From Antedon mediterranea (Eukaryota; Echinodermata; Crinoidea; Comatulida; Antedonidae), in assembly GCF_964355755.1 (NCBI RefSeq), contig NC_092677.1, positions 10,500,601 through 10,564,600 of the forward strand: a stretch of 64,000 bases of DNA, given 5' to 3'. How positions within the stretch are numbered: the first letter of the stretch is position 1; each line of letters starts with the position of its first letter. The translations under genes were made by a program, and so were the position numbers. Below the pieces are notes generated by a model. That model was not told the DNA's origin, made no database searches, and was given only the letters and a program-made list of their open reading frames with translations. This document shows, in pieces, positions 1,749-63,903 of this stretch.

Positions 1749-2107
1749 GATGATGTACTTTGTCAGTGTGCTCCTAAAATCAACGTTTTCACACTGAAGC
1801 ACAAAACGAATATATCTGATTTTCATAGGCCTTCTCTCATAATTTCCGATTTAAGTTAACCAATCAGATGCAGCCAATGAATTGCAATGAAAAATACTCA
1901 CTTAATGTCTTCTGATAAATAATTATGATATGGAAAGTGTGATTTTCCCCCTGAAATGTTACTGTTTTTTGTTTTTATGTAAATAGGAACCTTGCTGCTC
2001 AATTTGCGTTGTATAATTAACAATTAATTAGCAAAACAGTTGTACTGTAATAAGCATAATAATCAATTTAGACAGTTGGGGGTTCAGGAAACTGTAAAGT
2101 GTAGTCT

Positions 2108-25515: not shown

Positions 25516-25727
25516 TTACTGAATTAGAGCAACTTCGTCCTTTCGTAACTCTACATCCGTGTTTGGTATTTTACGGGAGATGATTCGATGTATCATAAAT
25601 ACCAAAGCGAATATTACAATAAGAAGAGTGACCATTGCGATAGTCATATACTGGTTCATAAAATGCTGCTCGGACATCAAGCTGTCGTACAACAAGGTAG
25701 AATCATTATCAATCTTCGTAGAAGAAG
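25516..25727 (-). CDS. EGF gene: last exon, transmembrane helix and short tail
   Basis: A phase-1 start gives a Ser/Asp-rich juxtamembrane stretch ([20 protein letters not shown]), a helix of about 22 hydrophobic residues ([19 protein letters not shown]), a basic stop-transfer segment (HRIISRK) and a cytoplasmic tail of about 20 residues ending VALIQ before TAA. No kinase, PDZ or SH2 motif is evident. Confidence 0.85.
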
Positions 25728-40700: not shown

Positions 40701-43700
40701 GGTCAAGTAGCATAGTATTTTTTAACAGTTGAATTTAAATTCACTAAATGTCACATCAAAATTATTTTTGTGATGGCATTATTTTAATGTATAGTCAATG
40801 AAGTTAATGAGAAAAATAAATAATAAAAAACAGCTAAAAAATAATGCATATTACAAGCATATATTGTAGGTAAAGCTATAGAAAGGGTTTTCAGTACTGT
40901 ACAGCAGTTAGTAAAAGACACAAAGACTTACCAGTAGAACAGAAAGCTCCACTAAAACAGCCAGAACATTGGCAAGTGTAACCATCGCAAGTTGAACCTG
41001 TGGCTACGCACACAGCCCCATTTTGGCATGAATTATTTTCGCAGGCATCAGATACTATAACATAGTTTAAAAAACATTATTAATTTTATTACTTTATTAC
41101 AAACATATATTTTAGGCTCCACAATGTTGAATGGATGAAAAATATTCCCATTTTCAATTCATGATCATTCATTCAACACACATTTTAGTGAAAGGTTTGC
41201 AAACAAATTGATCAAATGAAGGTGGACGGTTAAACTAGTTTTTTGTTAATGATCAACTATAGAAAGATGTAAAACCTACGTGTTTGACAGAATTGGCCAC
41301 TATAGCACGTGGGGCAGTTGCATTGGTAAGTGGTACATCCACTGCCTACATTGGCACAGGCAGCACCATTCATACACTGATGATTGTCACAGGCAGAAAC
41401 AGCTACAAAATAGAGAAAATATAAAAACATTTGTTCAGATGCCATTTATAAACAATCTGTAACATGGTGGGACCAAACCCTATTAGTCACACAGGCTATT
41501 CACCCCTTACTATCCTCGATGCCTACATAACTTGGAACACTACATTCCTGAGGTGGGTCTTCCAAGTAAAGTAAATCAGGATGTGGTACCATTTAATTAT
41601 TCATCCTTCCTGTCCACTTAATATAAATATATATTTTGTAGTTAAGTTAGTTAGTTCGGGTATTGATTCTTGAGACTATCACATCAGTCAGAATCACTAC
41701 ATTTTCACATTGTTTTATAATCTTACTTTTGATTGAATAAATAGTATATTTTGTACATTGAATACTTTTGTGCCATCGTTATTGTCTATGCCCTCGACAC
41801 GACTACCGTTACACAATCATACACATTTACACTAATCTACACTATTACACCAAATCTTATATTTAAATAAAATTGTTTTTTTAGTTGGAACAAGCACTCA
41901 ACACTAAAATAAACAATGTATTTAGAAAATTATGTAAGATAGAAAAACATTGATAGTAAAAACAAATACAATAATTGTTTATTTTACAGTTGGTTAGTGT
42001 CAACTGTATGAAAAATAACTGAAACTCACATGTTTCACAGAATTGTCCAGTGTAGCAATTTGGACAAGAACATGTGTATGCTGTACAGGAACCAGAAACT
42101 TGGACACAACCACCTCCATTCTGACAAGCATTGTTAGAGCAAGCATTCAACACTGATAAAACAAACATGACATGAATTACACACATTGTGTACTAGACTA
42201 ATAAGAGTAACAATTTAGATTGACTATGAATAATGATATACAAGTAGAAAAGAAAATGAAACTCACAAGTTTCACAGAATGTTCCAGTATAACAATTTGG
42301 ACAAGAACATGTGTATGCTGTACAGGAACCAGAAACCTGGACACAAGCAGCTCCATTCTGACAAGCATTGTTAGAGCAAGCATTTAACACTGATAAAACA
42401 AACATGACATGAATTACACACATTGTGTACTAGACTAGGAAGAGTAACACTTTAGATTGACTATGAATAATGATATACAAGTAGAAATATAAATGAATTG
42501 AAACTCACAAGTTTCACAGAATTGTCCAGTGTAGCAATTTGGACAAGAACATGTGTATGCTGTACAGGAACCAGAAACCTGAACACAACCAGCTCCATTT
42601 TGACAAGCATTGTTATCACAAGCATTCAGTACTAAAATAACAAAACAATGTACTTAGAAAATATGTAACATAGAAACATCTAATATAAATTATAAAGTGT
42701 GAATAAAAATATACAAATCATTTTTGTTATAGTTGTTTAATCAACTGGATGCAATATGAATGAAACTTACAAGTTTCACAGAATTGTCCAGTGTAGCAAT
42801 TTGGACAGGTACATGTGTATGCTGTACAGGAACCAGAAACCTGGACACAACCAGCTCCATTCTGACAAGCATTGTTAGAGCAGGCATTCAACACTAAAAC
42901 ATGATGACGAAACAATAATAAGTAACAGAAAACACATGGCAAACTATTACAAACACTAATATTAAGAAAAGATAATTATATAGCAAAATTGCGATATATG
43001 AATCGTAATAGGAAATGTACTGTAGCTCCATTGTAAAAAGCACTGGATTAGTTCTCACTTTGCAAAATATGTACCATAGAATAAAAATAACAATAATAAT
43101 ATGAAAATAAAAGAGTTTATAAATGTTTATATAGATAAAGATGGCTTAGTGATCTGGAGGTCGTGGGGGTCGTGGGGGTCGAGTTCAACTTGAGAATTAC
43201 TTGCAAATATCATTGCAAGTATTTTCAAATGTACTTAGTATTTTGTCAGATTAATATTAATATTAATCTTTATCATATGATAACAATATTGACAAAAATA
43301 GTTAAGATATTTGTTAAATAAAATGTATTGGTATATATTGTTTATAACTATTAAGTAGAAAGATAAAGTTAACATAATTTACAAAATGAAACATAAAATA
43401 TGTAAAATTCATAAATTAACGAAACTTACAAGTTTCACAGAATGTTCCGGTGTAGCAGCCTGGACAAGAACATGTGTATGCTGTACAGGAACCAGCAACC
43501 TGGACACAAGCACCTCCATTCTGACAAGCGTTGTTGTCACAAGCATTCAACACTATATAAAAAATATTTCAAAATGTCAAATTTCAAACTATATTTTGAA
43601 ATAATGTAATTATCTATTTTGCTAATAACAATAAGCACAGCAATATTAAGTACTGCAAAAATATAAAAGATAAATGTTAAATATGCGAACATAAGAACTA

Positions 43701-46700
43701 GCATATAATACAAATATCAAGTGATTAACTTACAAGTTTCACAGAATTGTCCGGTGTAACATGATGGACAGGTACATGTGTATGCTGTACAGGAACCAGA
43801 AACCTGGACACAACCACCTCCATTCTGACAAGCATTGTTGGTACAAGCATTCAACACTAAATAATAAAACAATGTACTTAGAAAATATGTAACCGAAATC
43901 TTGTATTATGTATTGTCAATTTAGAATTGGTTATGAAGGATTTACAGTTGTTTAGTCAACTGTGTGAAAATAAATGAAACATACAAGTTTCGCAGAATTG
44001 TCCAGTATAACAGTTTGGACAAGAACATGTGTATGCTGTACAGGAACCAGAAACTTGGACACAACCAGCTCCATTCTGACAAGCATTGTTGGAACAAGCA
44101 TTCAATACTGGAATAACAAGAAATAATAAAATAATGCACAAATATGTAACATAGAAACATCTAATATAAAATATACTGGATGCAACATGAATGACACGTA
44201 CAAGTTTCACAGAATTGTCCAGTGTAACATGATGGACAAGAACATGTGTATGCTGTACAGGAACCAGAAACCTGGACACAACCAGCTCCATTCTGACAAG
44301 CATGGTTAGAGCAAGTATTCAACACTGATAAAACAAACATGACATGAATTACACACATTGTGTACTAGACTAAGAAGAGTAACAATTAAGAGTGAATTTG
44401 AGTAATGATATGTAAGTAGAAATGAAAATGAAAGTCAAAAGTTTCAAAGAATGTTCCAGTATAACAATTTGGACAAGAACATGTGTATGCTGTACAGGAA
44501 CCTGAAACCTGGACACAACCAGCTCCATTCTGACAAGCATTGTTGGAGCAGGCATTCAACACAGATAAAACAAACATGACATGAATTACACACTTTGTGT
44601 ACTAGACTAAGAAGAGTAACAATTTAGATTGACTATGAATAATGATATGCAAGTAGAAATATAAATGAATTGAAACTCACAAGTTTCACAGAATGTTCCA
44701 GTGTAACAATTTGGACAAGAACATGTGTATGCTGTACAGGAACCAGAAACCTGGACACAACCAGCTCCATTCTGACAAGCATGGTTAGAGCAAGCATTCA
44801 ACACTGATTAAACAAACATGACATGAATTACACACATTGTGTACTAGACTAAGAAGAGTAACAATTAAGAGTTACTATGAAAAATGATATGCAAGTAGAA
44901 ATGTAAATGATACTAACAAGTTTCACAAAATTGTCCAGTAAAACAATTTGGACAAGAGCATGTGTATGCTGTACAGGAACCAGAAACCTGGACACAACCA
45001 GCTCCATTTTGACAAGCGTTGTTGGAACAAGCATTCAACACTACCAATGCGTGGTAATTAATTTAAGCATAGTATTTGAAATCTTTTATAGTATTTTTAG
45101 TTTATAGGCCTACTCAATTAAAATAATAAATATGGACATATTTTTTGACTTACAAGTTTCACAAAATTGTCCAGTATAACATGATGGACAAGAACACGTA
45201 TATGCTGTACAGGAACCAGAAACCTGGACACAACCAGCTCCATTCTGACAAGCGTTGTTGGAACAAGCATTCAACACTGAAATAATAAAATAATGCACTT
45301 AGAAAATATGTAACATAGAAACATCTAAAATAAAATATACAGGATGCAACATGAATGAAACGTACAAGTTTCACAGAATTGTCCAGTGTAACATGATGGA
45401 CAAGAACATGTGTATGCTGTACAGGAACCAGAAACCTGGACACAACCAGCTCCATTCTGACAAGCATTGTTGGAGCAGGCATTCAACACTGATAAAACAA
45501 ACATGACATGAATTACACACATTGTGTACTAGACTAAGAAGAGTAACAATTTAGATTGACTATGAATAATGATATGCAAGTAGAAATATAAATGAATTGA
45601 AACTCACAAGTTTCACAGAATGTTCCAGTGTAACAATTTGGACAAGAACATGTGTATGCTGTACAGGAACCAGAAACCTGGACACAACCAGCTCCATTCT
45701 GACAAGCATTGTTGTCACATGCATTCAACACTGAAAAAAGCAAATATAAAATTATTTAAAATGTCACAGAATTTTTGTATTTCAAACTATTTAGAAATAA
45801 TGTAAATATCTATTTTGCTAATAACAATAAGCACAACAATATTAAGTACTGGAAAAAGATAAAAGATAAATGTTAAATATGCGAACATAAGAACTAGCAT
45901 ATAATACAAATATCAAGTGATTAACTTACAAGTTTCACAGAATTGTCCGGTGTAACATGATGGACAGGTACATGTGTATGCTGTACAGGAACCAGAAACC
46001 TGGACACAACCACCTCCATTCTGACAAGCATTGTTGGTACAAGCATTCAACACTAAATAATAAAACAATGTACTTAGAAAATATGTAACCGAAATCTTGT
46101 ATTATGTATTGTCAATTTAGAATTGGTTATGAAGGATTTACAGTTGTTTAGTCAACTGTGTGAAAATAAATGAAACTTACAAGTTTCGCAGAATTGTCCA
46201 GTATAACAGTTTGGACAAGAACATGTGTATGCTGTACAGGAACCAGAAACTTGGACACAACCAGCTCCATTCTGACAAGCATTGTTGGAACAAGCATTCA
46301 ATACTGAAATAATAAAATAATGCACAAATATGTAACATAGAAACATCTAATATAAAATATACTGGATGCAACATGAATTAAACGTACAAGTTTCACAGAA
46401 TTGTCCAGTGTAACATGATGGACAAGAAAATGTGTATGCTATACAGGAACCAGAAACCTGGACACAACCAGCTCCATTCTGACAAGCATGGTTAGAGCAA
46501 GCATTCAACACTGATAAAACAAACATGACATGAATTACACACATTGTGTACTAGACTAAGAAGAGTAACAATTAAGAGTGAATTTGAGTAATGATATGTA
46601 AGTAGAAATGAAAATGAAAGTCACAAGTTTCACAGAATGTTCCAGTATAACAATTTGGACAAGAACATGTGTATGCTGTACAGGAACCTGAAACCTGGAC

Positions 46701-49700
46701 ACAACCAGCTCCATTCTGACAAGCGTTGTTGGAGCAGGCATTCAACACAGATAAAACAAACATGACATGAATTACACACATTGTGTACTAGACTAAGAAT
46801 AGTAACAATTTAGATTGACTATGAATAATGATATGCAAGTAGAAATATAAATGAATTGAAACTCACAAGTTTCACAGAATGTTCCAGTGTAACAATTTGG
46901 ACAAGAACATGTGTATGCTGTACAGGAACCAGAAACCTGGACACAACCAGCTCCATTCTGACAAGCATGGTTAGAGCAAGCATTCAACACTGATAAAACA
47001 AACATGACATGAATTACACACATTGTGTACTAGACTAAGAAGAGTAACAATTAAGAGTTACTATCAAAAATGATATGCAAGTAGAAATGTAAATGATACT
47101 AACAAATTTCACAAAATTGTCCAGTAAAACAATTTGGACAAGAACATGTGTATGCTGTACAGGAACCAGAAACCTGGACACAACCAGCTCCATTTTGACA
47201 AGCGTTGTTGGAACAAGCATTCAACACTACCAATGCGTGGTAATTAATTTAAGCATAGTATTTGAAATCTTTTATAGTATTTTTAGTTTATAGGCCTAAT
47301 CAATTAAAATAATAAATATGGACATATTTTTTGACTTACAAGTTTCACAAAATTGTCCAGTATAACATGATGGACAAGAACACGTATATGCTGTACAGGA
47401 ACCAGAAACCTGGACACAACCAGCTCCATTCTGACAAGCGTTGTTGGAACAAGCATTCAACACTGAAATAATAGAATAATGCACTTAGGAAATATGTAAC
47501 ATAGAAACATCTAAAATAAAATATACTGGATGCAACATGAATGAAACATACAAATTTCACAGAATTGTCCAGTGTAACATGATGGACAAGAACATGTGTA
47601 TGCAGTACAGGAACTAGAAACCAGGACACAACCAGCTCCATTCTGACAAGCATTGTTAGAGCAAGCATTCAACACTGATAAAACAAACATGACATGAATT
47701 ACACACATTGTGTACTAGACTAAGAAGAGTAACACTTTAGATTGACTATGAATAATGATATGCAAGTAGAAATATAAATGAAACTTACAAGTTTCACAGA
47801 ATTGTCCAGTGTAACAATTTGGACAAGAACATGTGTATGCTGTACAGGAACCAGAAACCTGAACACAACCAGCTCCATTTTGACAAGCATTGTTATCACA
47901 AGCATTCAGTACTAAAATAACAAAAAAATGTACTTAGAAAATATGTAACATAGAAACATCTAATATAAAATATAAAGAGTGAATAAAAATATACAAATCA
48001 TTTTTTATATAGTTGTTTAGTCAACTGGATGCAATGCAACATGAATGAAACTTACAAGTTTCACAGAATTGTCCAGTGTAGCAATTTGGACAAGAACATG
48101 TGTATGCTGTACAGGAACCAGAAACCTGGACACAACCAGCTCCATTCTGACATGCATTGTTGGAGCAGGCATTCAACACTGAAACAACAAACATGACATG
48201 AATTACACACATTGTGTACTAGACTAAGAAGAGTAACAATTTAGAATGACTATGAATAATGATATACAAGTAGAAATGTAAATGAAACTCACAAGTTTCA
48301 CAGAATGTTCCAGTATAACAATTTGGACAAGAACATGTGTATGCTGTACAGGAACCAGAAACCTGGACACAACCAGCTCCATTCTGACAAGCATTGTTGG
48401 AGCAGGCATTCAACACTGAAACAAAAAACATGACATGAATTACACACATTGTGTACTAGACTAAGAATAGTAACAATTTAGATTGACTATGAATAATGAT
48501 ATGCAAGTAGATATGTAAATGAAACTCACAAGTTTCACAGAATTGTCCAGTGTAGCAATTTGGACAAGAACATGTGTATGCTGTACAGGAACCAGAAACT
48601 TGGACACAACCACCTCCATTCTGACAAGCATTGTTAGAGCAAGCATTCAACACTGATAAAACAAACATGACATGAATTACACACATTATGTACTAGACTA
48701 AGAAGAGTAACAATTTAGATTGACTATGAATAATGATATGCAAGTAGATATGTAAATGAAACTCACAAGTTTCACAGAATTGTCCAGTGTAGCAATTTGG
48801 ACAAGAACATGTGTATGCTGTACAGGAACCAGAAACCTGAACACAACCAGCTCCATTTTGACAAACATTGTTATCACAAGCATTCAGTACTAAAATAACA
48901 AAACAATGTACTTAGAAAATATGTAACATAGAAACATCTAATATAAAATATAAAGAGTGAATAAAAATATACAAATCATATTTGTTATTAGTTGTTTAAT
49001 CAACTGGATGCAATATGAATGAAACTTACAAGTTTCACAGAATTGTCCAGTGTAGCAATTTGGACAAGAACATGTGTATGCTGTACAGGAACCAGAAACC
49101 TGGACACAACCAGCTCCATTCTGACAAGCATGGTTAGAGCAAGCATTCAACACTGATAAAACAAACATGACATGAATTACACACATTGTGTACTAGACTA
49201 AGAAGAGTAACACTTTAGATTGACTATGAATAATGATATACAAGTAGAAATATAAATGAAACTCACAAGTTTCACAGAATGTTCCAGTATAACAATTTGG
49301 ACAAGAACATGTGTATGCTGTACAGGAACCAGAAACCTGGACACAAGCAGCTCCATTCTGACAAGCATTGTTAGAGCAAGCATTTAACACTGATAAAACA
49401 AACATGACATGAATTACACACATTGTGTACTAGACTAAGAAGAGTAACAATTAAGAGTGAATTTGAGTAATGATATGTAAGTAGAAATATAAATGAAACT
49501 AACAAGTTTCACAAAATGTTCCAGTATAACAATTTGGACAAGAACTTGTGTATGCTGTACATGAACCAGAAACCTGAATACAACCAGCTCCATTCTGACA
49601 AGCGTTGTTGGAGCAAGCATTCAACACTACCAATGCGTGGAAATTAATTTAAGCATAGTATTTGATATCTTTTATAGTATTTTTAGTTTATAATAGGCAT

Positions 49701-52700
49701 AATCAATTACATTTATCAATATGGACATATTTTTTGACTTACAAGTTTCACAGAATTGTCCAGTATAACATGATGGACAAGAACACGTGTATGCTGTACA
49801 GGAACCAGAAACCTGGACACAGCCAGCTCCATTCTGACAAGCATGGTTAGAGCAAGCATTCAACACTGATAAAACAAACATAACATGAATTACACACATT
49901 GTGTACTACACTAAGAAGAGTAACAATTTAGATTGACTATGAAAAATGATATACAAGTAGAAATGAAAATGAAACTCACAAGTTTCACAGAATGTTCCAG
50001 TATAACAATTTGGACAAGAACATGTGTATGCTGTACAGGAACCAGAAACCTGGACACAACCACCTCCATTCTGACAAGCATGGTTAGAGCAAGCATTCAA
50101 CACTGATAAAACAAACATGACATGAATTACACACATTGTGTACTAGACTAAGAAGAGTAACACTTTAGATTGACTATGAATAATGATATACAAGTAGAAA
50201 TATAAATAAAACTTACAAGTTTCACAGAATTGTCCAGTGTAACAATTTGGACAAGAACATGTGTATGCTGTACAGGAACCAGAAACCTGCACACAACCAG
50301 CTCCATTTTGACAAGCATTGTTATCACAAGCATTCAGTACTAAAATAACAAAACAATGTACTTAGAAAATATGAAACATAGAAACATCTAATATAAAATA
50401 TAAAGAGTGAATAAAAATATACAAATCATTTTTGTTATAGTTGTTTAATCAACTGGATGCAATATGAATGAAACTTACAAGTTTCACAGAATTGTCCAGT
50501 GTAGCAATTTGGACAAGAACATGTGTATGCTGTACAGGAACCAGAAACCTGGACACAACCAGCTCCATTCTGACAAGCATGGTTAGAGCAAGCATTCAAC
50601 ACTGATAAAACAAACATGACATGAATTACACACATTGTGTACTAGACTAAGAAGTGTAACAATTTAGATTGACTATGAATAATGATATACAAGTAGAAAT
50701 ATAAATGAAACTCACAAGTTTCACAGAATGTTCCAGTATAACAATTTGGACAAGAACATGTGTATGCTGTACAGGAACCAGAAACCTGGACACAAGCAGC
50801 TCCATTCTGACAAGCATTGTTAGAGCAAGCATTTAACACTGATAAAACAAACATGACATGAATTACACACATTGTGTACTAGACTAAGAAGTGTAACACT
50901 TTAGATTGACTATGAAAAATGATATGTAAGTAGAAATATAAATGAAACTAACAAGTTTCACAAAATGTTCCAGTATAACAATTTGGACAAGAACTTGTGT
51001 ATGCTGTACATGAACCAGAAACCTGAATACAACCAGCTCCATTCTGACAAGCGTTGTTGGAGCAAGCATTCAACACTACCAATGCGTGGAAATTAATTTA
51101 AGCATAGTATTTGATATCTTTTATAGTATTTTTAGTTTATAATAGGCATAATCAATTAAATTGATCAATATGGACATATTTTTTGACTTACAAGTTTCAC
51201 AGAATTGTCCAGTATAACATGATGGACAAGAACATGTGTATGCTGTACAGGAACCAGAAACCTGGACACAACCAGCTCCATTCTGACAAGCATTGTTATC
51301 ACAAGCATTCAGTACTAAAATAACAAAACAATGTACTTAGAAAATATGTAACATAGAAACATCTAATATAAAATATAAAGAGTGAATAAAAATATACAAA
51401 TCATTTTTGTTATAGTTGTTTAATCAACTGGATGCAATATGAATGAAACTTACAAGTTTCACAGAATTGTCCAGTGTAGCAATTTGGACAAGAACATGTG
51501 TATGCTGTACAGGAACCAGAAACCTGGACACAACCAGCTCCATTCTGACAAGCATGGTTAGAGCAAGCATTCAACACTGATAAAACAAACATGACATGAA
51601 TTACACACATTGTGTACTAGACTAAGAAGAGTAACACTTTAGATTGACTATGAACAATGATATACAAGTAGAAATATAAATGAAACTTACAAGTTTCACA
51701 GAATGTTCCAGTATAACAATTTGGACAAGAACATGTGTATGCTGTACAGGAACCAGAAACTTGGACACAACCACCTCCATTCTGACAAGCATTGTTGGTA
51801 CAAGCATTCAATACTGGAATAACAAGAAAGATAAATGGTTAAAAGAGATAAGTATAAATGTAGTTGTGCTATGTACAGTAGTTGTTTAAAACAATCGCAA
51901 TCGCAGAAACTTACAAGTTTCACAGAATTGTCCGGTATAACACGATGGACAGGTACATGTGTATGCTGTACAGGAACCAGAAACCTGGACACAGGTAGCT
52001 CCATTCTGACAAGCGCTGTTAGAACAAGCATTCAACACTGCAAAATATAGGAAATTATATGCATTCTTTACTTTCTAATCATCTTTGTTATGTTAAAAAA
52101 ATTTGATCCTTCTTTTGAGATGTAAAAGAATAAAGAATTACATAAACTTACAAGTTTCACAGAATTGTCCAGTGTAACAATTTGGACAAGAACATGTGTA
52201 TGCTGTACAGGAACCAGAAACCTGGACACAACCGCCTCCATTCTGACAAGCATTGTTATCACAAGCATTCAACACTGTAAAATAAAAGAAAAACATTTTT
52301 AAATCGTCGTTTTTTTTTTAATTATTACCATTGTTAATTAATTAGTAGATTATTTAATAGTATAACAAATGCAAGAAAAAGAGACACCACCAGCAATAAT
52401 ACTGAAAATGAATAAATGTAAAGAAGTATTATGTTGGACAAGTTTTCAGTAAAAATAACTCACATGTTTCACAAAATTGTCCAGTGTAACATGTTGGACA
52501 AGAACATGTGTATGCTGTACAGGAACCAGAAACCTGGACACAAAAAGCTCCATTCTGACAAGCATTGTTGGAGCAAGCATTCAACACTACCAATGCATGA
52601 GAATTTAAGCATAGCATATATAAAATCTTATATAGTATAGGTATTTTATAATAGGCCTGAAAAATTCATGCAATTCTGACAAGAATTATTCGAATCCATG

Positions 52701-55700
52701 GAAATTTAAGAATAGTATATTAAACCTATATGTAGGCCTACTAATTTAAATTTCTAAGTAACGACATAGGTTTAAACTCACATGTTTCGCAGAATTGTCC
52801 TGTATAACAATTTGGACAAGAACATGTGTATGCTGTACAGGAACCAGACACCTGGACACAACCAGCTCCATTCTGACAAGCATTGTTGGTACAAGCATTC
52901 AATACTGGAATAACAAGAAAGATAAAGTGGTTAAAAGAGATAAATATAAATGTAGTTGTGCTATGTACAGTAGTTGTTTAAAACAATCGCAGAAACTCAC
53001 AAGTTTCACAGAATTGTCCGGTATAACACGATGGACAGGTGCATGTGTATGCTGTACAGGAACCAGAAACCTGGACACAGGTAGCTCCATTCTGACAAGC
53101 GCTGTTAGAACAAGCATTCAACACTGCAAAATATAGGAAATTATATGCATTCTTTACCTTCTAATCATCTTTGTTATGTTAAAAAAAATTTGATCCTTTT
53201 TTTGAGATGTAAAAAAATAAAGAATTACAGAAACTTACAAGTTTCACAGAATGTTCCAGTATAACATGATGGACAAGAACATGTGTATGCTGTACAGGAA
53301 CCAGAAACCTGGACACAACCGCCTCCATTCTGACAAGCATTGTTATCACAAGCATTCAACACTGTAAAATAAAAGAAAAACATTTTTAAATTGTCATTGT
53401 TTTGTAATTATTACCATTGTTAATTAATTAGTATATTATTTAATAGTATAACAAATGCAAGAAAAAGAGACACCACCAGCAATAATACTGAAAATGAATA
53501 AATGTTAAGAAGTATTATATTGGACAAGTTTTCAGTAAAAATAACTCACATGTTTCACAAAATTGTCCAGTGTAACATGTTGGACAAGAACATGTGTATG
53601 CTGTACAGGAACCAGAAACCTGGACACAAAAGGCTCCATTCTGACAAGCATTGTTGGAACAAGCATTCAACACTACCAATGCATGGGAATTTAAGCATAG
53701 CATATATAAAATCTTATATAGTATAGGTATTTTATAATAGGCCTGAAAAATTCATGCAATTCTGACAAGAATTATTCGAGTCCATGGAAATTTAAGAATA
53801 GTATATTAAACCTATATGTAGGCCTACTAATTTAAATTTCTAAGTAACGACATAGGTTTAAACTCACATGTTTCGCAGAATTGTCCTGTATAACAATTTG
53901 GACAAGAACATGTGTATGCTGTACAGGAACCAGACACCTGGACACAACCAGCTCCATTCTGACAAGCATTGTTGGTACAAGCATTCAATACTGGAATAAC
54001 AAGAAAGATAAAGTGGTTAAAAGAGATAAATATAAATGTAGTTGTGCTATGTACAGTAGTTGTTTAAAACAATCGCAGAAACTCACAAGTTTCACAGAAT
54101 TGTCCGGTATAACACGATGGACAGGTGCATGTGTATGCTGTACAGGAACCAGAAACCTGGACACAGGTAGCTCCATTCTGACAAGCGCTGTTAGAACAAG
54201 CATTCAACACTGCAAAATATAGGAAATTATATGCATTCTTTACCTTCTAATCATCTTTGTTTGGTTTTAAAAATTTGATCCTTCTTTTGAGATGTAAAAG
54301 AATAAAGAATTACATAAACTTACAAGTTTCACAGAATGTTCCAGTATAACATGATGGACAAGAACATGTGTATGCTGTACAGGAACCAGAAACCTGGACA
54401 CAACCACCTCCATTCTGACAAGCATTGTTATCACAAGCATTCAACACTGTAAAATAAAAGAAAAACATTTTTAAATTGTCATTGTTTTGTAATTATTACC
54501 ATTGTTAATTAATTAGTAGATTATTTAATAGTATAACAAAAGCAAGAAAAAGAGACACCACCAGCAATAATACTGAAAATGAATAAATGTAAAGAAGTAT
54601 TATATTGGACAAGTTTTCAGTAAAAATAACTCACATGTTTCACAAAATTGTCCAGTGTAACATGTTGGACAAGAACATGTGTATGCTGTACAGGAACCAG
54701 AAACCTGGACACAAAAGGCTCCATTCTGACAAGCATTGTTGGAGCAAGCATTCAACACTACCAATGCATGGGAATTTAAGCATAGCATATATAAAATCTT
54801 ATATAGTATAGGTATTTTATAATAGGCCTGAAAAATTCATGCAATTCTGACAAGCATTATTCAAATCCATGGAAATTTAAGAATAGTATATTAAACCTAT
54901 ATGTAGGCCTACTAATTTAAATTTCTAAGTAACGACATAGGTTTAAACTCACAAGTTTCGCAGAATTGTCCAGTATAACAATTTGGACAAGAACATGTGT
55001 ATGCTGTACAGGAACCAGACACCTGGACACAACCACCTCCATTCTGACAAGCATTGTTGGTACAAGCATTCAATACTGGAATAACAAGAAAGATAAATGG
55101 TTAAAAGAGATAAATATAAATGTAATTGTGCTATGTACAGTAGTTGTTTAAAACAATTGCAGAAACTCACAAGTTTCACAGAATTGTCCGGTATAACACG
55201 ATGGACAGGTGCATGTGTATGCTGTACAGGAACCAGAAACCTGGACACAGGTAGCTCCATTCTGACAAGCGCTGTTAGAACAAGCATTCAACACTGCAAA
55301 ATATAGGAAATTATATGCATTCTTTACCTTCTAATCATCTTTTTGATGTTTTAAAAAATTTGATCCTTCTTTTGAGATGTAAAAGAATAAAGAATTACAT
55401 AAACTTACAAGTTTCACAGAATGTTCCAGTATAACATGATGGACAAGAACATGTGTATGCTGTACAGGAACCAGAAACCTGGACACAACCAGCTCCATTC
55501 TGACAAGCATGGTTAGAGCAAGCATTTAACACTGAAATAAAAAAAAACAATGTATTTTGGAAAAAATGTAAAATAGAAATATCTATTTAAAAAATATAAC
55601 ATGTGAAGAAAAACATAAAATCATTTATAGTTGTTTAGTCAACTGAATAAAACAAAAATGAAACTTACAGGTTTCACAGAATGTTCCAGTGTAACATGAA

Positions 55701-61700: not shown

Positions 61701-63903
61701 GGCACATTGATTACCATCACAGGCATTTATTACTGCAATAAACATGTAATACATTCCTAAAATTCCATGGTAATCTTGATAGAAGATATAGACGTACTGG
61801 GCAACTAAATAGCTCACTACTAGTTATTATATATTTTTTTTCTTATGCCAAAGCCCTAAAGTTAATTTGTTACTCTATGATATTTATATTGGATAGCAGG
61901 CGGTAAGTGCCCCTTAAATCAAACCATAGAAAACAGGGCATCATGCTGACATCCCTGCTCAACGCTTACGCGATTATGCTTTTGAATTAGCACCTTCCAT
62001 AACAGAATTGTTTAATAGTGCATTAAAACAAGGAATTTTCAAAGATATTTTAAAAAATAAATTCAGCCTTGTATTGGTCTCCGGAATTATTGGAGATACT
62101 GATTTCAATGACCTCCACCGTTAGCAAGACATTTTAGATATTTGAGAATAATTAGATGGTACCCGTCTATTGGTTGACGGGTAATATTATTAATACTTTA
62201 TGCTCAAACACAATGTTTTAAAATAAGTCTCTTGATTCTAGGATATTGTATTCTACTTACAAGCTTCACAAAATTGTCCAGTGTAACATGATGGACAAGA
62301 ACACGTGTATGCTGTACAGGAACCAGCAACCTGGACACAACCACCTCCATTCTGGCAAGCATGGTTAGAACAAGCATTCAACACTGATAAAAAAAACATG
62401 ACATGAATTACACACATTGTGTACTAGACTAAGAAGAATAACAATTTAGATTGACTATGAATAATGGTATACAAGTAGAAATGAAAATAAAACTCACAAG
62501 TTTCACAGAATGTTCCAGTATAACATGATGGACAAGAACATGTGTATGCTGTACAGGAACCAGAAACCTGAACACAACCAGCCCCATTCTGACAAGCATT
62601 ATTAGAGCAAGCATTCAACACTGAAACAAAAACAATATAAACAATGGGTATCATAAACAATGGGTATCATAAGCATTCAGCAATGCAATAATAATAAATA
62701 TGAAAAAACAATCAACAAAGCCAGATAAAATTGAAATATAAATGTATTCTTTTTATGTACATCATTAAGATGAAGAATGGACAACCAAAGAAACTCACAA
62801 GTTTCACAGAATTGTCCAGTGTAACATGATGAACAAGAACATGTGTATGCTGTACAGGAACCAGAAACTTGGACACAACCAGCTCCATTCTGACAAGCAT
62901 GGTTAGAGCAAGCATTCAACACTGTTAAAACAAACATGACATGAATTACACACATTGTGTACTAGACTAAGAAGAGTAACAATTTAGATTGACTATGAAT
63001 AATGATATACAAGTAGAAATGAAAATGAAACTCACAAGTTTCACAGAAAGTTCCAGTGTAACATGATGGACAAGAACATGTGTATGCTGTACAGGAACCA
63101 GAAACCTGGACACAACCAGCTCCATTCTGGCAAGCGTTGTTGCTACAAGCATTCAACACTAACATAGAGAAACATTAAAAAACAAATTGATAACAGACAA
63201 ACATTAAACAATTAGACACATTGTAAACCAGACTCCTTTATAATGAGTATACGTTCTTTAAGAAAAACTGGGATCTTACAAGTTTCACAGAATGTTCCAG
63301 TGTAACATGATGGACAAGTACATGTGTATGCTGTACAGGAACCAGAAACCTGGACACAAAATGCTCCATTCTGACAAGCGTTGTTGTTACATGCATTCAA
63401 TACTAACATAGAGAAATATTAAGAACAAATTGATATCACACAAACATGAAATAATTAGACACATTGTGAACCGGATTGAGAAGACATTACTTTATACTGA
63501 GTATACATTGGAAGCTTACAAGTTTCACAGAATGTTCCGGTATAACAGTTTGGACAAGAACATGTGTATGCTGTACAGGAACCAGAAACCTGGACACAAC
63601 CAGCTCCATTCTGACAAGCATTGTTGTTACAAGCATTCAATACTGAAATGAATGATTAAAATGGTTTGACAAAACAAGGACAAGAACAATATAATACAGA
63701 TCATGAAAAACACAAGAAACGAAAAAAACTGACAAGTTTAAGAAAACAAACAATATTAGAAATGACATATTGAATCTTACAAGTTTCACAGAATTGTCCA
63801 GTGTAACATGATGGACAGCTACATGTATATGCTGTACAGGAGCCAGAAACCTGGACACAAGCAGCTCCATTCTGACAAGCATGGTTAGAACAGGCATTCA
63901 ATA
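25516..63903 (-). CDS. Giant EGF-repeat type I membrane protein (5' end outside window)
   Basis: One minus-strand gene is inferred from 92 consecutive exons, all separated by phase-1 introns. In protein order (high to low coordinate): 73 near-identical 123-bp exons (63903 to 42030), each one eight-cysteine EGF-like domain of 41 residues; then 17 more divergent EGF exons plus one truncated, RRRR-bearing EGF exon; then a transmembrane/tail exon. Two array exons (44439, 46625) have damaged splice sites. The visible part encodes about 3,800 residues. There is no signal peptide in the window, so the start lies beyond 64000. Role: an extended extracellular rod anchored in the plasma membrane is the natural reading; adhesion, matrix or recognition functions are all possible. 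It is not Notch: there are no LNR repeats, RAM region or ankyrin repeats, and the tail is very short. Whether all exons enter one transcript cannot be seen from DNA. Confidence 0.85.
26129..26248 (-). CDS. EGF gene: membrane-proximal EGF exon
   Basis: 120 bp, six-cysteine EGF ([13 protein letters not shown] then [11 protein letters not shown]). CANDGTC fits the O-fucose consensus C2-x4-S/T-C3. Confidence 0.85.
26650..26811. mobile_element. TTAA-flanked MITE in an EGF-gene intron
   Basis: TTAA at the left (26650) and a TGAA variant at the right (26808). Termini CCTCTGTCCACACTATCAAA and its inverted partner. The interior has GTGATGTGCCCATATATGG. Confidence 0.85.
26842..26949 (-). CDS. EGF gene: short EGF exon
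   Basis: 108 bp, six cysteines ([10 protein letters not shown] then [12 protein letters not shown]). The C1-C2 spacing is shortened to a single residue. Confidence 0.8.
27720..28096. mobile_element. Inverted-repeat MITE (about 377 bp)
   Basis: The left end AAGCCGATTTTCCACTAGGC, continuing GAATTTGTTCGCGC, recurs inverted at 28061-28096. The interior is rich in TTCGC/GCGAA words. It resembles the short element at 2108-2265 in its terminal AARGCC-ATTTTC. No protein is supported. Confidence 0.8.
28180..28290 (-). CDS. EGF gene: truncated EGF exon with RRRR (furin-like) motif
   Basis: 111 bp, phase-1 on both sides. It begins as a normal EGF ([18 protein letters not shown], then YIC) with four cysteines, but the C5-C6 loop is replaced by [17 protein letters not shown] fits the R-x-K/R-R consensus of furin-type proprotein convertases. 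It is encoded two EGF exons ahead of the transmembrane exon, so cleavage would release the large ectodomain. CTSNPC fits the O-glucose consensus. Confidence 0.75.
28726..28836 (-). CDS. EGF gene: canonical EGF exon
   Basis: 111 bp, six cysteines: [14 protein letters not shown] then [14 protein letters not shown]. Carries both O-glucose (CQSNPC) and O-fucose (CQNGGTC) consensus sites. Confidence 0.88.
29150..29296. mobile_element. TTAA-flanked MITE, best-preserved copy
   Basis: TTAA-GCTCTGTCTACATTATCAAA at the left and its inverted copy (TTTGATAGTGTAGACAGAGG) followed by TTAA at the right. About 139 bp between target duplications. The interior repeats TGATGTGCCCAAATATGGTA and the inverted CCATATATGAGCACATCAC. 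Confidence 0.9.
29949..30068 (-). CDS. EGF gene: EGF exon, founder of a small tandem family
   Basis: 120 bp, six cysteines: [14 protein letters not shown] then [16 protein letters not shown]. Closely related to the next three exons (30578, 30962, 31349). Confidence 0.85.
30339..30560. mobile_element. Inverted-repeat MITE (about 222 bp)
   Basis: The left end GTCGTATTCGATT is matched inverted at the right (AATCGAATACGAC). The interior is full of GTTGAGTAC and CGTTGACAACG words, also in inverted arrangement. It sits in the intron between two duplicated EGF exons and makes that intron longer than its siblings. Confidence 0.75.
30578..30691 (-). CDS. EGF gene: EGF exon (tandem copy 1)
   Basis: 114 bp, [14 protein letters not shown] and [13 protein letters not shown]. 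First of three copies of an exon-plus-intron unit of about 385 bp. Confidence 0.85.
30962..31078 (-). CDS. EGF gene: EGF exon (tandem copy 2)
   Basis: 117 bp, nearly identical to the neighbouring copies, including flanking intron sequence. C-terminal variant ends CQTSTS. Confidence 0.85.
31349..31477 (-). CDS. EGF gene: EGF exon (tandem copy 3), two possible acceptors
   Basis: Same tandem family. The better acceptor (TTATTGCAG) gives 129 bp and adds four residues (TGTA) before NAC. An inner acceptor, which would end the exon at 31465, gives 117 bp. Both keep phase 1. Confidence 0.8.
31672..31788. mobile_element. Partial TTAA-family MITE next to a SINE fragment
   Basis: Right terminus CTAGTTTGATAGTGTAGACA then GAGC. 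The left terminus is missing. Immediately left (about 31630-31655) is TGGATTTGAACCAGAGACC, a B-box-like tRNA-derived sequence on the minus strand. Confidence 0.7.
31847..31960 (-). CDS. EGF gene: canonical EGF exon
   Basis: 114 bp, six cysteines: [14 protein letters not shown] then [15 protein letters not shown]-fucose consensus present. Confidence 0.88.
32336..33467. repeat. Direct duplication inside a long intron
   Basis: Bases 32336-32632 recur at about 33097-33467. The shared part runs from GGCTTCGCATTTTTCTATCT through GGGCCCTTTGAGAATAAACT. The second copy has an internal extra repeat of about 60-70 bp (GCTAGAGTACACCATCATAA). It looks like part of a larger dispersed element (about 32070-34440); no coding potential was recognised. 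Confidence 0.7.
34302..34374. mobile_element. Tc1/mariner (pogo)-like terminal fragment
   Basis: Ends GGATTCTACTGTA, the inverse of the TACAGTAGAATCC terminus seen at 10383, and contains the GGGGACAC and AAAGTCCCC words of that family. Confidence 0.45.
34841..34972 (-). CDS. EGF gene: EGF exon, two possible acceptors
   Basis: Six cysteines: [13 protein letters not shown] then [14 protein letters not shown]. It has an O-glucose consensus (CDSSPC). The exon ends at 34972 (132 bp) or 34963 (123 bp) depending on acceptor; both keep phase. Confidence 0.82.
35268..35341 (-). repeat. tRNA-derived SINE fragment
   Basis: The minus strand reads GGTTAGATAGTGGAACGG (A-box region) and later GGGTTCGAGCC (B box), then CTTACTCGCTCC. 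Cloverleaf pairing of the acceptor stem is poor. Confidence 0.55.
35608..35721 (-). CDS. EGF gene: canonical EGF exon
   Basis: 114 bp, six cysteines: [14 protein letters not shown] then [14 protein letters not shown]-fucose consensus present. Confidence 0.87.
35796..35925. mobile_element. Mariner/pogo-like relic
   Basis: CTCTATTAAGGGGACACC at the left and GTCACCTTAATAGGGGTG at the right form an imperfect inverted pair of the same family as the fragment at 10383. Confidence 0.45.
36339..36494 (-). CDS. EGF gene: long EGF exon
   Basis: 156 bp: [36 protein letters not shown]. Seven cysteines, with an extra one in the enlarged C3-C4 loop. O-fucose consensus present. Confidence 0.82.
36765..36842 (+). 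repeat. Possible tRNA-derived SINE fragment
   Basis: GGAGCCATAGTTTGGTGGTT resembles a tRNA 5' half with A box. The B-box region (TTCCAGGGTTG) is degenerate. Confidence 0.35.
36991..37164 (-). CDS. EGF gene: longest EGF exon
   Basis: 174 bp: [13 protein letters not shown], then an enlarged C3-C4 loop ([20 protein letters not shown]), then [12 protein letters not shown]. Six cysteines, O-fucose consensus present. Confidence 0.83.
37433..37546. mobile_element. Partial TTAA-family MITE
   Basis: TTAA at 37433, internal GGTGGTGATATACGCAAATA and CCATATATGGGCACATCACA, and an eroded right terminus GTTGATAGTGTAGAAAAGGC. Confidence 0.65.
37672..37806 (-). CDS. EGF gene: canonical EGF exon
   Basis: 135 bp, six cysteines: [14 protein letters not shown] then [15 protein letters not shown]-fucose consensus present. 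Confidence 0.87.
38776..38821. repeat. LINE-type 3' tail remnant
   Basis: GTGAATAAAGAATTTGACTT followed by degenerate TTGAACTTTGACTTT repeats, as seen at the 3' ends of some non-LTR elements. No coding part is attached. Confidence 0.3.
38966..39035 (+). mobile_element. Terminal fragment of the Penelope-like family
   Basis: GAGGCAGTTTTAACCTATTT through TATCCTGCCTATGCAGCTCT matches the 3' end of the Penelope-like insertion at 56825-56886. It lies in an EGF-gene intron. Confidence 0.65.
39392..39598. repeat. 65-bp tandem repeat, three copies
   Basis: Three nearly identical units (AAAAGAAGCCTGCCACATCC ... TTTGCAAAAGTAAAGGTAAT), the last followed by a partial copy. Intronic. Confidence 0.9.
39631..39762 (-). 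CDS. EGF gene: transitional seven-cysteine EGF exon
   Basis: 132 bp: [14 protein letters not shown], then [11 protein letters not shown], then [11 protein letters not shown]. It has the extra cysteine before C4 that marks the array domains, but keeps Gly (not Cys) in the C5-C6 loop, so it is intermediate between the two types. Confidence 0.85.
40489..40617 (-). CDS. EGF gene: eight-cysteine EGF exon, closest to the membrane
   Basis: 129 bp: [13 protein letters not shown], then [19 protein letters not shown]. This is the most C-terminal domain with both extra cysteines. Confidence 0.85.
40932..41054 (-). CDS. EGF gene: eight-cysteine EGF exon
   Basis: 123 bp: [15 protein letters not shown], then [19 protein letters not shown]. 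Same length and cysteine plan as the array exons but diverged in sequence. Confidence 0.85.
41280..41402 (-). CDS. EGF gene: eight-cysteine EGF exon
   Basis: 123 bp: [14 protein letters not shown], then [19 protein letters not shown]. Shares [10 protein letters not shown] with the array units. Confidence 0.85.
42030..42893 (-). CDS. EGF array block A: four 123-bp exons
   Basis: Exons start at 42030, 42267, 42509 and 42771; each is 123 bp. The unit reads [11 protein letters not shown][A/G]x[25 protein letters not shown]. Introns are mostly about 114-119 bp and nearly as conserved as the exons (ACAAACATGACATGAATTAC; GTGTACTAGACTAAGAAGAG). The cysteine plan is C-x4-C-x5-C-x6-C-x4-C-x-C-x2-C-x5-C. 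Confidence 0.9.
43430..45488 (-). CDS. EGF array block B: first nine-exon unit
   Basis: Exon starts: 43430, 43734, 43985, 44202, 44439, 44681, 44918, 45154, 45366. The block matches block C exon for exon at an offset of about 2.18-2.20 kb, including intron lengths. The exon at 44439-44561 looks dead: the acceptor AG is TG, the donor GT is TT, and the last cysteine codon is Phe. The others keep eight cysteines and GT-AG sites. Confidence 0.88.
44439..44561 (-). pseudogene. Dead EGF exon: acceptor, donor and last Cys lost
   Basis: On the plus strand the usual AACACTGAT (acceptor) is AACACAGAT and the usual GTCAC (donor) is GTCAA. The C-terminal FCET is FFET. Because flanking introns are phase 1 on both sides, skipping it keeps the reading frame. 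Its duplicate at 46625-46747 shares only the acceptor lesion. Confidence 0.85.
45608..47674 (-). CDS. EGF array block C: second nine-exon unit
   Basis: Exon starts: 45608, 45930, 46181, 46388, 46625, 46867, 47104, 47340, 47552. Duplicate of block B. The exon at 46388 has lost the fifth cysteine (TFSC instead of TCSC). The exon at 46625 has the same mutated acceptor as its block-B partner but an intact donor and all eight cysteines. Confidence 0.88.
46625..46747 (-). pseudogene. EGF exon with lost splice acceptor
   Basis: The coding unit is intact, with eight cysteines and a good GT donor, but the acceptor dinucleotide reads TG (AACACAGAT on the plus strand). The nearest internal AG, in CTTGTCAG, lies 32 nt inside and would shift the frame, so skipping is more likely than cryptic use. 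Confidence 0.75.
47789..48889 (-). CDS. EGF array block D: five exons
   Basis: Exon starts: 47789, 48056, 48293, 48530, 48767. Regular spacing of 237-267 bp. All eight cysteines and GT-AG sites kept. The exon at 48767 reads NACDNNVC-type (ACAAACATTG in place of ACAAGCATTG on the plus strand). Confidence 0.88.
49030..50339 (-). CDS. EGF array block E: six-exon unit, copy 1
   Basis: Exon starts: 49030, 49267, 49504, 49743, 49980, 50217. The first four match block F at an offset of 1449 bp. The exon at 49504 has lost the fifth cysteine (YTSSC for YTCSC). Confidence 0.88.
50479..51576 (-). CDS. EGF array block F: partial second copy of the six-exon unit
   Basis: Exon starts: 50479, 50716, 50953, 51192, 51454. 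The exon at 50953 carries the same Cys-to-Ser change as its partner at 49504, so that substitution predates this duplication. Confidence 0.88.
51691..55531 (-). CDS. EGF array block G: four-exon unit of 1.09 kb, nearly four copies
   Basis: Exon starts: 51691, 51915, 52152, 52464; 52782, 53001, 53239, 53550; 53868, 54087, 54324, 54635; 54953, 55171, 55409. Successive copies are offset by 1091, 1086 and 1085 bp. Each unit has characteristic members: one with CQNGATC (O-fucose consensus), one with CQNGAFC, and two of the common form. Intron sequences also repeat with the 1.09-kb period. Confidence 0.9.
55669..59571 (-). CDS. EGF array block H: eleven exons with larger, diverged introns
   Basis: Exon starts: 55669, 56024, 56953, 57299, 57567, 58088, 58561, 58767, 58990, 59227, 59449. 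Exons stay near consensus while introns differ in length and sequence and carry insertions (Penelope-like fragment at 56196, dispersed repeat at 57741). The exons at 59227 and 59449 share the variant [10 protein letters not shown]. All GT-AG and phase 1. Confidence 0.87.
56196..56891 (+). mobile_element. 5'-truncated Penelope-like retroelement (GIY-YIG remnant)
   Basis: Inserted in the intron between EGF exons 56024 and 56953. A 15-bp direct repeat ATAAATATAAATGTA flanks it (56181-56195 and 56892-56906). The plus strand encodes [10 protein letters not shown] then [10 protein letters not shown], the start of the GIY-YIG endonuclease of Penelope-like elements, and after a deletion/frameshift near 56360 [18 protein letters not shown] and the C-terminal end (stop about 56550). 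A hammerhead-like motif lies at 56772-56814. The reverse transcriptase is absent. Confidence 0.8.
56772..56814 (+). ncRNA. Hammerhead-ribozyme-like motif in the Penelope-like element
   Basis: Order: TTTTCAC, CTGATGA, T-GGGC-TAT-GCCC, GAAA, CATGTC, GTTAAAA. CTGATGA and GAAA are the hammerhead core boxes. GGGC/GCCC forms stem II. TTTTCAC pairs with GTTAAAA (six of seven) as stem I. GTC would be the cleavage triplet. The extra U before stem II departs from the classical core, so activity is uncertain. Such ribozymes are known from Penelope-like elements. Confidence 0.5.
57741..58030. repeat. Dispersed repeat (copy 1)
   Basis: TATATAGCACTTGATGCACA, later CAGGTACCCATTTGTACACC and GTGTCTTGCCTAAGGACACA, ending in a GGATTGGATTCCC B-box-like segment. 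The same modules occur at 59855-60146 and, in part, at about 40085-40235. Confidence 0.65.
59855..60146. repeat. Dispersed repeat (copy 2), split by a hAT-like element
   Basis: TTTATATAGCACCTAATGTT, CAGGTACCCATTTATACACC, GTATCTTGCCTAAGGATACA and GTTGGATTCGAACCTCGATC. Its end (ACACTGCGC) reappears after the inserted element at 61209 (CTGCGCCACATG). Confidence 0.65.
60149..61208. mobile_element. Non-autonomous hAT-like element (about 1.06 kb)
   Basis: Left terminus GGCCCGTAGCCAGGGGGGGT; right terminus CCTGGCTACGGCCCTG, its inverted partner (CAGGGCCGTAGCCAGG is a hAT-style end). Both ends carry G/C homopolymer runs and GAACCCCCC. CTGCGC on both sides may be part of a target duplication. No transposase was recognised inside. 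Confidence 0.7.
61332..61732 (-). CDS. EGF array block I: two isolated exons
   Basis: Exons 61332-61454 ([15 protein letters not shown], near consensus) and 61610-61732, the most diverged array member ([38 protein letters not shown]). Both are 123 bp with eight cysteines and phase-1 sites. Confidence 0.87.
61966..62088 (+). pseudogene. Probable reverse-transcriptase remnant
   Basis: A short frame reads [20 protein letters not shown], then [10 protein letters not shown], like the region just ahead of the RT fingers in CR1/jockey-type LINEs (usually ...ELAPxLTxIFNxSLxxGxxPxxWK). No RT catalytic motif is nearby. The match is by eye and short. Confidence 0.4.
62261..63903 (-). CDS. EGF array block J: seven exons at the window edge
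   Basis: Exon starts: 62261, 62498, 62799, 63036, 63280, 63520, 63781. All are 123 bp, eight cysteines, GT-AG, phase 1. The exon at 62799 has CSSC for CPSC; the one at 63280 has CQNGAFC. The last (63781-63903) is still a mid-array module, so the gene continues past 64000. Confidence 0.88.

What the first reader, a model, noticed from the sequence alone, without database searches (positions are those of the whole stretch)
42030..63903. 73 near-identical single-domain EGF exons in one membrane-protein gene
Every exon is 123 bp, phase 1 on both sides, and encodes the same 41-residue domain. Symmetric exons can be gained, lost or skipped without breaking the frame, so the gene is built for rapid length change. 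The array is still open at the window edge. I know of no described gene with this exact domain repeated this many times, but I could not search.
Basis: partly seen in the sequence, partly recalled or inferred. Interest (0 to 1): 0.8.

Follow-up and report, generated by a model that had tools for sequence, protein, structure and literature searches.

The report
Giant self-shuffling EGF exon array gene
One animal gene appears to carry over a hundred near-copies of the same small EGF-type protein block, each on its own interchangeable exon, and the DNA suggests that these exons keep duplicating, dying and swapping pieces with one another.

Summary
In detail: 73 minus-strand units of 123 bp lie at 42030-63903. 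71 of 73 have AG/GT splice sites and phase 1-1; two lost a splice site, three more lost a cysteine. The array runs past both reported ends: 114 units detectable, 111 full length, 109 spliceable, 106 of those with eight cysteines. A hand-built model gives one gene of 129 exons over 62.3 kb: signal peptide, the array, conventional EGF exons, one transmembrane helix, 5,324 aa. No transcript could be checked.

Exons stay alike while 4,322 of 5,356 unit pairs have flanking introns at chance identity. Variable codons are nearly unlinked; left-hand variants follow the upstream intron, right-hand ones the downstream intron. I read this as concerted evolution: block duplication plus exchange inside exons. 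The same unit forms arrays of 43 and 39 copies on another chromosome, upstream of adhesion-GPCR (7tm_2) exons.

Function is inferred: a long adhesive or recognition stalk. The kind is known (Notch, ADGRE1, LPA KIV-2); scale, the 8-cysteine unit and the shuffling make it a new variant.

The parts
42030..63903 (-). 73 units of 123 bp, one 8-cysteine EGF domain each, phase 1-1
40489..41402 (-). three further, more diverged 8-Cys EGF exons (41402-41280, 41054-40932, 40617-40489) at the 3' end of the array
46625..46747 (-). splice-dead unit: acceptor AG changed to TG
44439..44561 (-). splice-dead unit: same broken acceptor, donor also lost, last Cys changed to Phe
51683..55549 (-). higher-order block: about 1.09 kb (four exons) repeated, 97.2% identical over 2,788 bp at offset 1,091
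43411..47924 (-). higher-order block of about 2.18 kb duplicated, 95.8% identical over 2,355 bp; it carried the broken acceptor along
39631..39762 (-). transitional EGF exon with 7 Cys
26129..37806 (-). 14 conventional (mostly 6-Cys) EGF-like exons of the same gene, one of them (28290-28180) cut short and carrying RRRR
25516..25727 (-). last exon: transmembrane helix, short cytoplasmic tail, stop

Best explanation
The window holds the 3' two thirds of one gene for a very large single-pass cell-surface protein: signal peptide, two conventional EGF domains, a rod of about 109 near-copies of an 8-cysteine EGF domain, about 15 conventional EGF-like domains, one transmembrane helix and a short tail. 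The extra cysteine pair (C4, C7) probably forms a fourth disulfide. Each rod domain is one 123-bp phase 1-1 exon, so exons can be added, lost or skipped without frame damage. The array is kept alike by concerted evolution: unequal crossing-over duplicates blocks of one to several exon-intron units, and exchange between units with breakpoints inside the conserved exon core re-pairs the variable 5' and 3' codons. Shown by sequence: array, exon symmetry, duplicated blocks, dead exons, weak linkage between codons, junction pattern. Inferred: that all exons are spliced into one mRNA, the disulfide, and the role as a long adhesive or recognition stalk.
For: One model of 129 exons ends in a single stop. 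110 of 111 full-length units are exactly 123 bp although introns vary from 83 to 1,760 bp. Outside seven variable codons pN/pS is 0.10. 4,322 of 5,356 unit pairs have best flanking-intron identity below 0.65, where the shuffled null has mean 0.57 and maximum 0.65, yet exon identity averages about 0.87 and third-position identity about 0.85. Mean r2 between codons is 0.024 over 221 site pairs in 68 dereplicated units, while inside codons 28, 31 and 36 it is 0.68-1.0. Pairs sharing only the upstream intron match better at left codons (0.772 against 0.633), pairs sharing only the downstream intron at right codons (0.724 against 0.554); difference 0.309, bootstrap 0.20-0.43. A and the C2 loci have fixed different synonymous codons: codon 23 ACA 99/104 against ACT 81/81, codon 32 TGT 92/104 against TGC 81/81. 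EGF fold: pLDDT 87.2, Z 6.1 to an EGF domain.
Against: No transcript was available. The model was built by choosing open, phase 1-1 exons, so its single frame is partly by construction, and it leaves out the two dead exons and three remnants. r2 does not fall with distance (Spearman -0.06, p 0.35; permutation p 0.16), as it should if tracts were long compared with an exon. Within-codon r2 is low at codons 1, 5 and 7 (0.00-0.37). 3 of 21 pairs of variable sites are associated at p below 0.01 (5-7, 7-14, 14-28). Third-position identity of A with the other C8 loci (0.829, 0.820) is close to that within A (0.855), so within-locus homogenisation is clear only against C2. Without the largest intron class only 12 and 6 pairs are left in the junction test. 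The seven variable codons were picked after looking at the data.
Confidence: 0.6

Rival explanations
1. The array is a menu, not a rod: each transcript takes one or a few of the symmetric exons, in the manner of Dscam1 or of EGF-exon skipping in ADGRE1, and so makes many isoforms.
For: All spliceable units are phase 1-1; 60 different seven-site combinations occur in 104 units; in ADGRE1 every single-exon EGF domain shows skipping (PMC6174849, passages).
Against: The joints are uniform: 105 of 113 split codons at unit junctions are Leu, and almost all units keep both splice sites, as expected if they are read in series. Nothing resembling a selector/docking system was looked for.
Confidence: 0.15
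2. The exon likeness comes from selection on synonymous sites (splicing enhancers, codon use) and not from exchange between units.
For: The most invariant stretch, codons 15-27, is central in the exon and pS there is low (0.115 for codons 9-27); A, C and D share most of it.
Against: The C2 loci use other synonymous codons in the same stretch, nearly fixed (codon 23, 26). Selection alone does not make left variants follow the upstream intron and right variants the downstream intron.
Confidence: 0.15
3. It is a highly variable self/non-self or gamete recognition protein like ascidian HrVC70, with exon shuffling as its source of diversity.
For: Variation is concentrated in seven codons (pN/pS 0.79 against 0.10 elsewhere) and shuffled; HrVC70 is an EGF-repeat protein with restricted polymorphic sites (PMC9265791, passages).
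Against: No ZP domain: 15 ZP matches in the genome, none on C8. pN/pS at the variable codons is below 1, which fits relaxed constraint as well. No population data.
Confidence: 0.15
4. Several small genes or a largely dead repeat array rather than one gene.
For: Two units are splice-dead, three are truncated, three lack a cysteine.
Against: One signal-peptide exon and one transmembrane exon; 0 internal signal-peptide candidates, though the controls also give 0 and 0.2, so this test has little power; 109 of 111 full-length units keep splice sites and frame.
Confidence: 0.06
5. Assembly artefact: repeated reads stacked into too many copies.
For: The region is highly repetitive; one 932-bp block is 99.6% identical.
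Against: Most blocks of 600 bp or more differ by 2-9% with indels; most introns differ; no N in the 94 kb.
Confidence: 0.04

Closest known systems
ADGRE1 (EMR1, F4/80) and other EGF-TM7 adhesion GPCRs
   Same: EGF domains on single in-frame exons; exon skipping; EGF exons duplicated as a set (7 to 14) in some mammals (PMC6174849, passages). The C2 arrays of the same unit lie upstream of 7tm_2 exons.
   Different: The window gene has one transmembrane helix; its unit has 8 Cys; about 109 against up to 14 domains; exon-centred homogenisation.
LPA kringle IV type 2 and other exon-containing coding VNTRs (DMBT1, NEB)
   Same: Units of exon plus intron repeated in tandem inside a coding gene, with paralogous sequence variants between units (PMC11201333 passages; 1-40 units of 5.6 kb per allele, PMC11462820 abstract start in the listing).
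   Different: Unit of about 237 bp with one EGF exon; introns mostly diverged while exons are not; copy-number polymorphism not tested here.
Notch, Delta and fibrillin EGF arrays
   Same: EGF fold (profile of 40 exons against PDB: Delta-like 1 E 6.4e-34, Notch1) and one-exon EGF modules (fibrillin, recalled).
   Different: Units there are diverged and positionally conserved; here near-copies with 8 Cys and no acidic calcium motif before C1 (motif recalled).
Ascidian vitelline-coat protein HrVC70/HrVC120
   Same: Tandem EGF repeats with variation at restricted sites (PMC9265791, passages).
   Different: 12 EGF repeats and a ZP domain there; no ZP match on C8 here.
Drosophila Dumpy (recalled, no call)
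   Same: Giant membrane-anchored EGF protein with hundreds of modules.
   Different: EGF modules alternate with DPY modules and are not near-identical single-exon copies (recalled).

Membership tests
EGF-like domain | EGF fold | tested here: met
   AlphaFold2 single unit pLDDT 87.2; best Z 6.1, rmsd 1.4 over 37 residues to an EGF domain; hmmsearch against PDB E 6.4e-34 to Delta-like 1, with a mixed 8-Cys/6-Cys profile
EGF-like domain | Pfam PF00008 over its curated cut-off | tested here: not met
   17.1 bits (one unit) and 18.2 (two units) against 21.5
Laminin-type EGF (8 Cys) | match to the Pfam laminin EGF model | tested here: not met
   not among the families listed at E up to 1; cysteine spacing also differs (laminin spacing recalled)
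EGF-TM7 adhesion GPCR (ADGRE type): window gene | 7tm_2 domain | tested here: not met
   the C2 7TM pieces give no tblastn match at E up to 0.05 in the 94 kb around the gene; the model ends after one helix
EGF-TM7 adhesion GPCR: C2 loci | 7tm_2 domain downstream of the array on the same strand | tested here: met
   PF00002 55.7 and 44.3 bits, cut-off 20.6; the exon recurs at 13729806 and 13785227; exon-by-exon linkage to the array not modelled
EGF-TM7 adhesion GPCR: C2 loci | GAIN/GPS domain | tested here: inconclusive
   three exon-like pieces between Ig and 7TM give no Pfam match; single pieces may be too short
HrVC70/HrVC120-type vitelline coat protein | ZP domain | tested here: not met
   15 ZP matches genome-wide, none on C8
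Exon-containing coding VNTR (LPA KIV-2 type) | tandem units of exon plus intron in frame | tested here: met
Exon-containing coding VNTR (LPA KIV-2 type) | unit number differs between individuals | not testable with these tools
   one assembly only
Concerted evolution | units more alike within than between loci | tested here: inconclusive
   clear for A against C2 (third-position identity 0.855 within A, 0.697 between), weak for A against the other C8 loci (0.829, 0.820)

The most novel reading that the evidence does not exclude
A germline-diversified recognition receptor: a constant 8-cysteine EGF scaffold carrying a small set of codon alleles at about seven surface positions, re-assorted between more than a hundred exons by recombination inside the exon core, shared between a single-pass receptor and adhesion GPCRs, with exon number and content differing between individuals, and used for self/non-self, gamete or microbe recognition in an invertebrate deuterostome.
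Probability: 0.2. Interest if true: 0.88.

Novelty: new variant of a known kind. Interest (0 to 1): 0.6.

Why it matters
It offers a single place with more than a hundred natural replicates of one exon, in which duplication, decay and exchange can be told apart because exons and introns behave differently. If individuals differ, it would be among the longest exon-based coding arrays with allelic length change. The link to an array of the same unit beside adhesion-GPCR exons makes a direct test possible: does stalk length or composition tune a receptor?

Tried and rejected
Ascidian HrVC70 reading: dropped because no ZP match lies on C8; Pfam cellulose synthase gave no match, a weak test for tunicates. 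Organism: COX1 gave nothing, the 18S family search failed with a tool error and was not repeated, an exact 18S-start pattern gave 0, and searches for a genome paper by size gave nothing usable. A Hox search gave 23 matches at E up to 1e-10, 12 of them in one cluster on C2 at 7.83-8.21 Mb; I named the genes by recall. The hemichordate cluster is described as 12 genes all in one orientation except the last pair (PMC3707753, passages); here one of the two outermost is inverted and the outermost is not, so I stop at 'ambulacrarian-like'.

Distance decay of linkage inside exons: tested, not significant. Positive selection at the variable codons: not shown, pN/pS 0.79 pooled; only codons 14 and 36 (and barely 13) have pN above pS. 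No Rfam family reached its gathering score in the window. A multi-domain model was not attempted because a spliced protein is not contiguous in the DNA. Paper searches for a described array of this kind (listings, open-licence library only) showed none in the rows that I saw; this is no proof of absence.

Full report
What was checked. The window is C8:10500601-10564600 of an unnamed 354-Mb genome in 18 contigs. 71 of 73 have both splice sites and phase 1-1. Two have lost the acceptor AG (46747, 44561), the second also the donor and a cysteine; they lie at matching places of a 2.18-kb duplicated block, so the broken acceptor was probably copied with it. Three more have 7 Cys (51075, 49626, 46510). 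68 of 73 are intact.

Full extent. With 30 kb more sequence the array has 114 detectable units, 111 full length, 109 with both splice sites, 106 of these with 8 Cys; three are truncated remnants. Upstream lie two conventional EGF exons, a 7-Cys exon and one signal-peptide exon (87784 in window numbering, C8:10588384); downstream 15 further EGF-like exons and a transmembrane exon with stop at 25516. Choosing one exon per place gives 129 exons, 15,975 nt and 5,324 aa with a single stop at the end. Because exons were chosen to be open and phase 1-1, the open frame is partly built in; the independent support is that 110 of 111 full-length units keep 123 bp while introns range from 83 to 1,760 bp, that pN/pS is 0.28 overall and 0.10 outside seven variable codons, and that no second signal-peptide candidate occurs in the array introns of 150 bp or more (opposite strand 0, shuffles 0.2 on average, so low power). 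The transmembrane exon has no second copy: the only other match in the genome is weak (E 0.139). One juxtamembrane exon (28290-28180) is a shortened EGF ending in RRRR, a possible convertase site (motif recalled).

The unit. C-x4-C-x5-C-x6-C-x4-C-x-C-x2-C-x5-C: an EGF pattern with an extra Cys in the C3-C5 loop and another before the last Cys. Conventional 6-Cys and two kinds of 7-Cys exons flank the array. The single-unit model has pLDDT 87.2 and aligns with EGF domains at Z up to 6.1, rmsd 1.4 over 37 residues; Z under 8 is modest but the domain has only 40 residues. A profile of 40 exons (mixed 8-, 7- and 6-Cys) finds Delta-like 1 and Notch1 in the PDB (E 6.4e-34 and 7.4e-33). Pfam EGF stays below its cut-off. 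105 of 113 split codons between units are Leu, giving the linker CET-L-LNAC.

How the array evolves. Self-comparison shows blocks of 600 bp or more at 91 to 99.6% identity with offsets of one to many units: tandem duplication at different times. Exons and introns behave differently. In 4,322 of 5,356 pairs the better of the two flanking introns is below 0.65 identity, the maximum of the shuffled null, yet exon identity averages about 0.87 and third-position identity about 0.85. In 68 units kept after removing recent copies, sites in different codons are almost unlinked (mean r2 0.024, 221 pairs), while the multi-base codon alleles at 28, 31 and 36 stay together (r2 0.68-1.0). Recurrent mutation would have to make the same two- and three-base changes many times; exchange is simpler. 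Direct support: pairs that share only the upstream intron agree at left codons (0.772) more than at right ones (0.633), pairs that share only the downstream intron the reverse (0.554, 0.724); the difference of differences is 0.309, bootstrap over units 0.20-0.43. Results against or weakening this: r2 shows no decline with distance; within-codon r2 is low at codons 1, 5, 7; three of 21 variable-site pairs are associated at p below 0.01; without the largest intron class only 12 and 6 pairs remain.

Other loci. The unit's core pattern occurs 268 times: 183 on the reverse strand, which are 93 in this gene and 90 on C2, and 85 forward, of which I placed 1 on C1, 14 at C8:1.6 Mb and 12 at C8:1.197 Mb; 58 I did not place. 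On C2 two loci have 43 and 39 strict 8-Cys units and are near-copies of each other (for example 99.3% over 13.5 kb). Downstream, same strand, follow an EGF exon (EGF_2 23.8 bits, over cut-off), an Ig-like exon (below cut-off) and two 7tm_2 exons (55.7 and 44.3 bits, cut-off 20.6). A third copy of the 7TM exon lies at C2:13785227, and 61 matches at E up to 1e-6 occur in the genome. I did not model these genes exon by exon, so 'array on an adhesion GPCR' rests on order, strand and distance. The 7TM pieces have no match in the 94 kb around the window gene. Synonymous states differ between loci: codon 23 ACA 99/104 here and ACT 81/81 on C2; codon 26 ACA 96/104 and ACG 79/81; codon 32 TGT 92/104 and TGC 81/81. 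That argues against fixed synonymous constraint. But A is nearly as like the other C8 arrays (0.829, 0.820) as like itself (0.855) at third positions, so the locus effect is clear only against C2.

Which animal. Twelve homeobox exons in order on C2 (7.83-8.21 Mb), with Hox names given by me from recall, look like an ambulacrarian cluster (compared with passages of PMC3707753, and PMC11310086). I do not name a class.

Function. Inferred only. Long EGF rods of membrane proteins serve adhesion or ligand binding. Variation sits in seven codons (5, 7, 13, 14, 28, 31, 36) chosen after inspection; pooled pN/pS there is 0.79, which fits relaxed constraint or mild diversification; 71 different peptides and 60 seven-site combinations occur among 104 units. 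Precedents: ADGRE1, with single-exon EGF domains that are skipped and duplicated (PMC6174849, passages), and LPA KIV-2, an exon-containing coding VNTR (PMC11201333, passages). The extreme number, the 8-Cys unit and exchange inside exons are what is new here.

Noticed in passing
C2:13660001-13770000 (L016, L004-L010, L018): Two near-identical loci with 43 and 39 units of the same EGF exon, followed on the same strand by EGF, Ig-like and 7tm_2 exons; third 7TM copy at C2:13785227.
   Followed up: partly
C8:1190001-1230000 (L019-L022) and C8:1605001-1655000 (L011-L015): Further smaller arrays of related 8-Cys units; 58 forward core-pattern matches remain unplaced.
   Followed up: partly
window 30561-31470: A 387-bp tandem duplication (2.3 copies, 98% matches) of a conventional EGF exon in the same gene: the 6-Cys part is also growing.
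   Followed up: no
window 28180-28290: Shortened EGF exon ending in RRRR, possible convertase cleavage site near the membrane.
   Followed up: no
window 15388-17943: Minus-strand open frame of 851 aa that reads like a non-LTR retrotransposon endonuclease/reverse transcriptase (by eye, no search).
   Followed up: no
window 603-1850: Minus-strand single-exon gene with Ig domains (V-set 43 bits, Ig_3 69 bits) and a transmembrane helix.
   Followed up: partly
window 22760-22999 and 24102-24323: Short tandem repeats with a 15-16-bp unit around CATTTCGCCGACA, in opposite orientations; similar peptides appear in reading frames of L004 on C2.
   Followed up: no
C2:7827797-8206141 (L023-L036): Ordered cluster of 12 homeobox exons with one of the two outermost posterior genes inverted.
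   Followed up: partly
C10:21409211-21514977: Cluster of 8 ZP-domain matches on C10.
   Followed up: no
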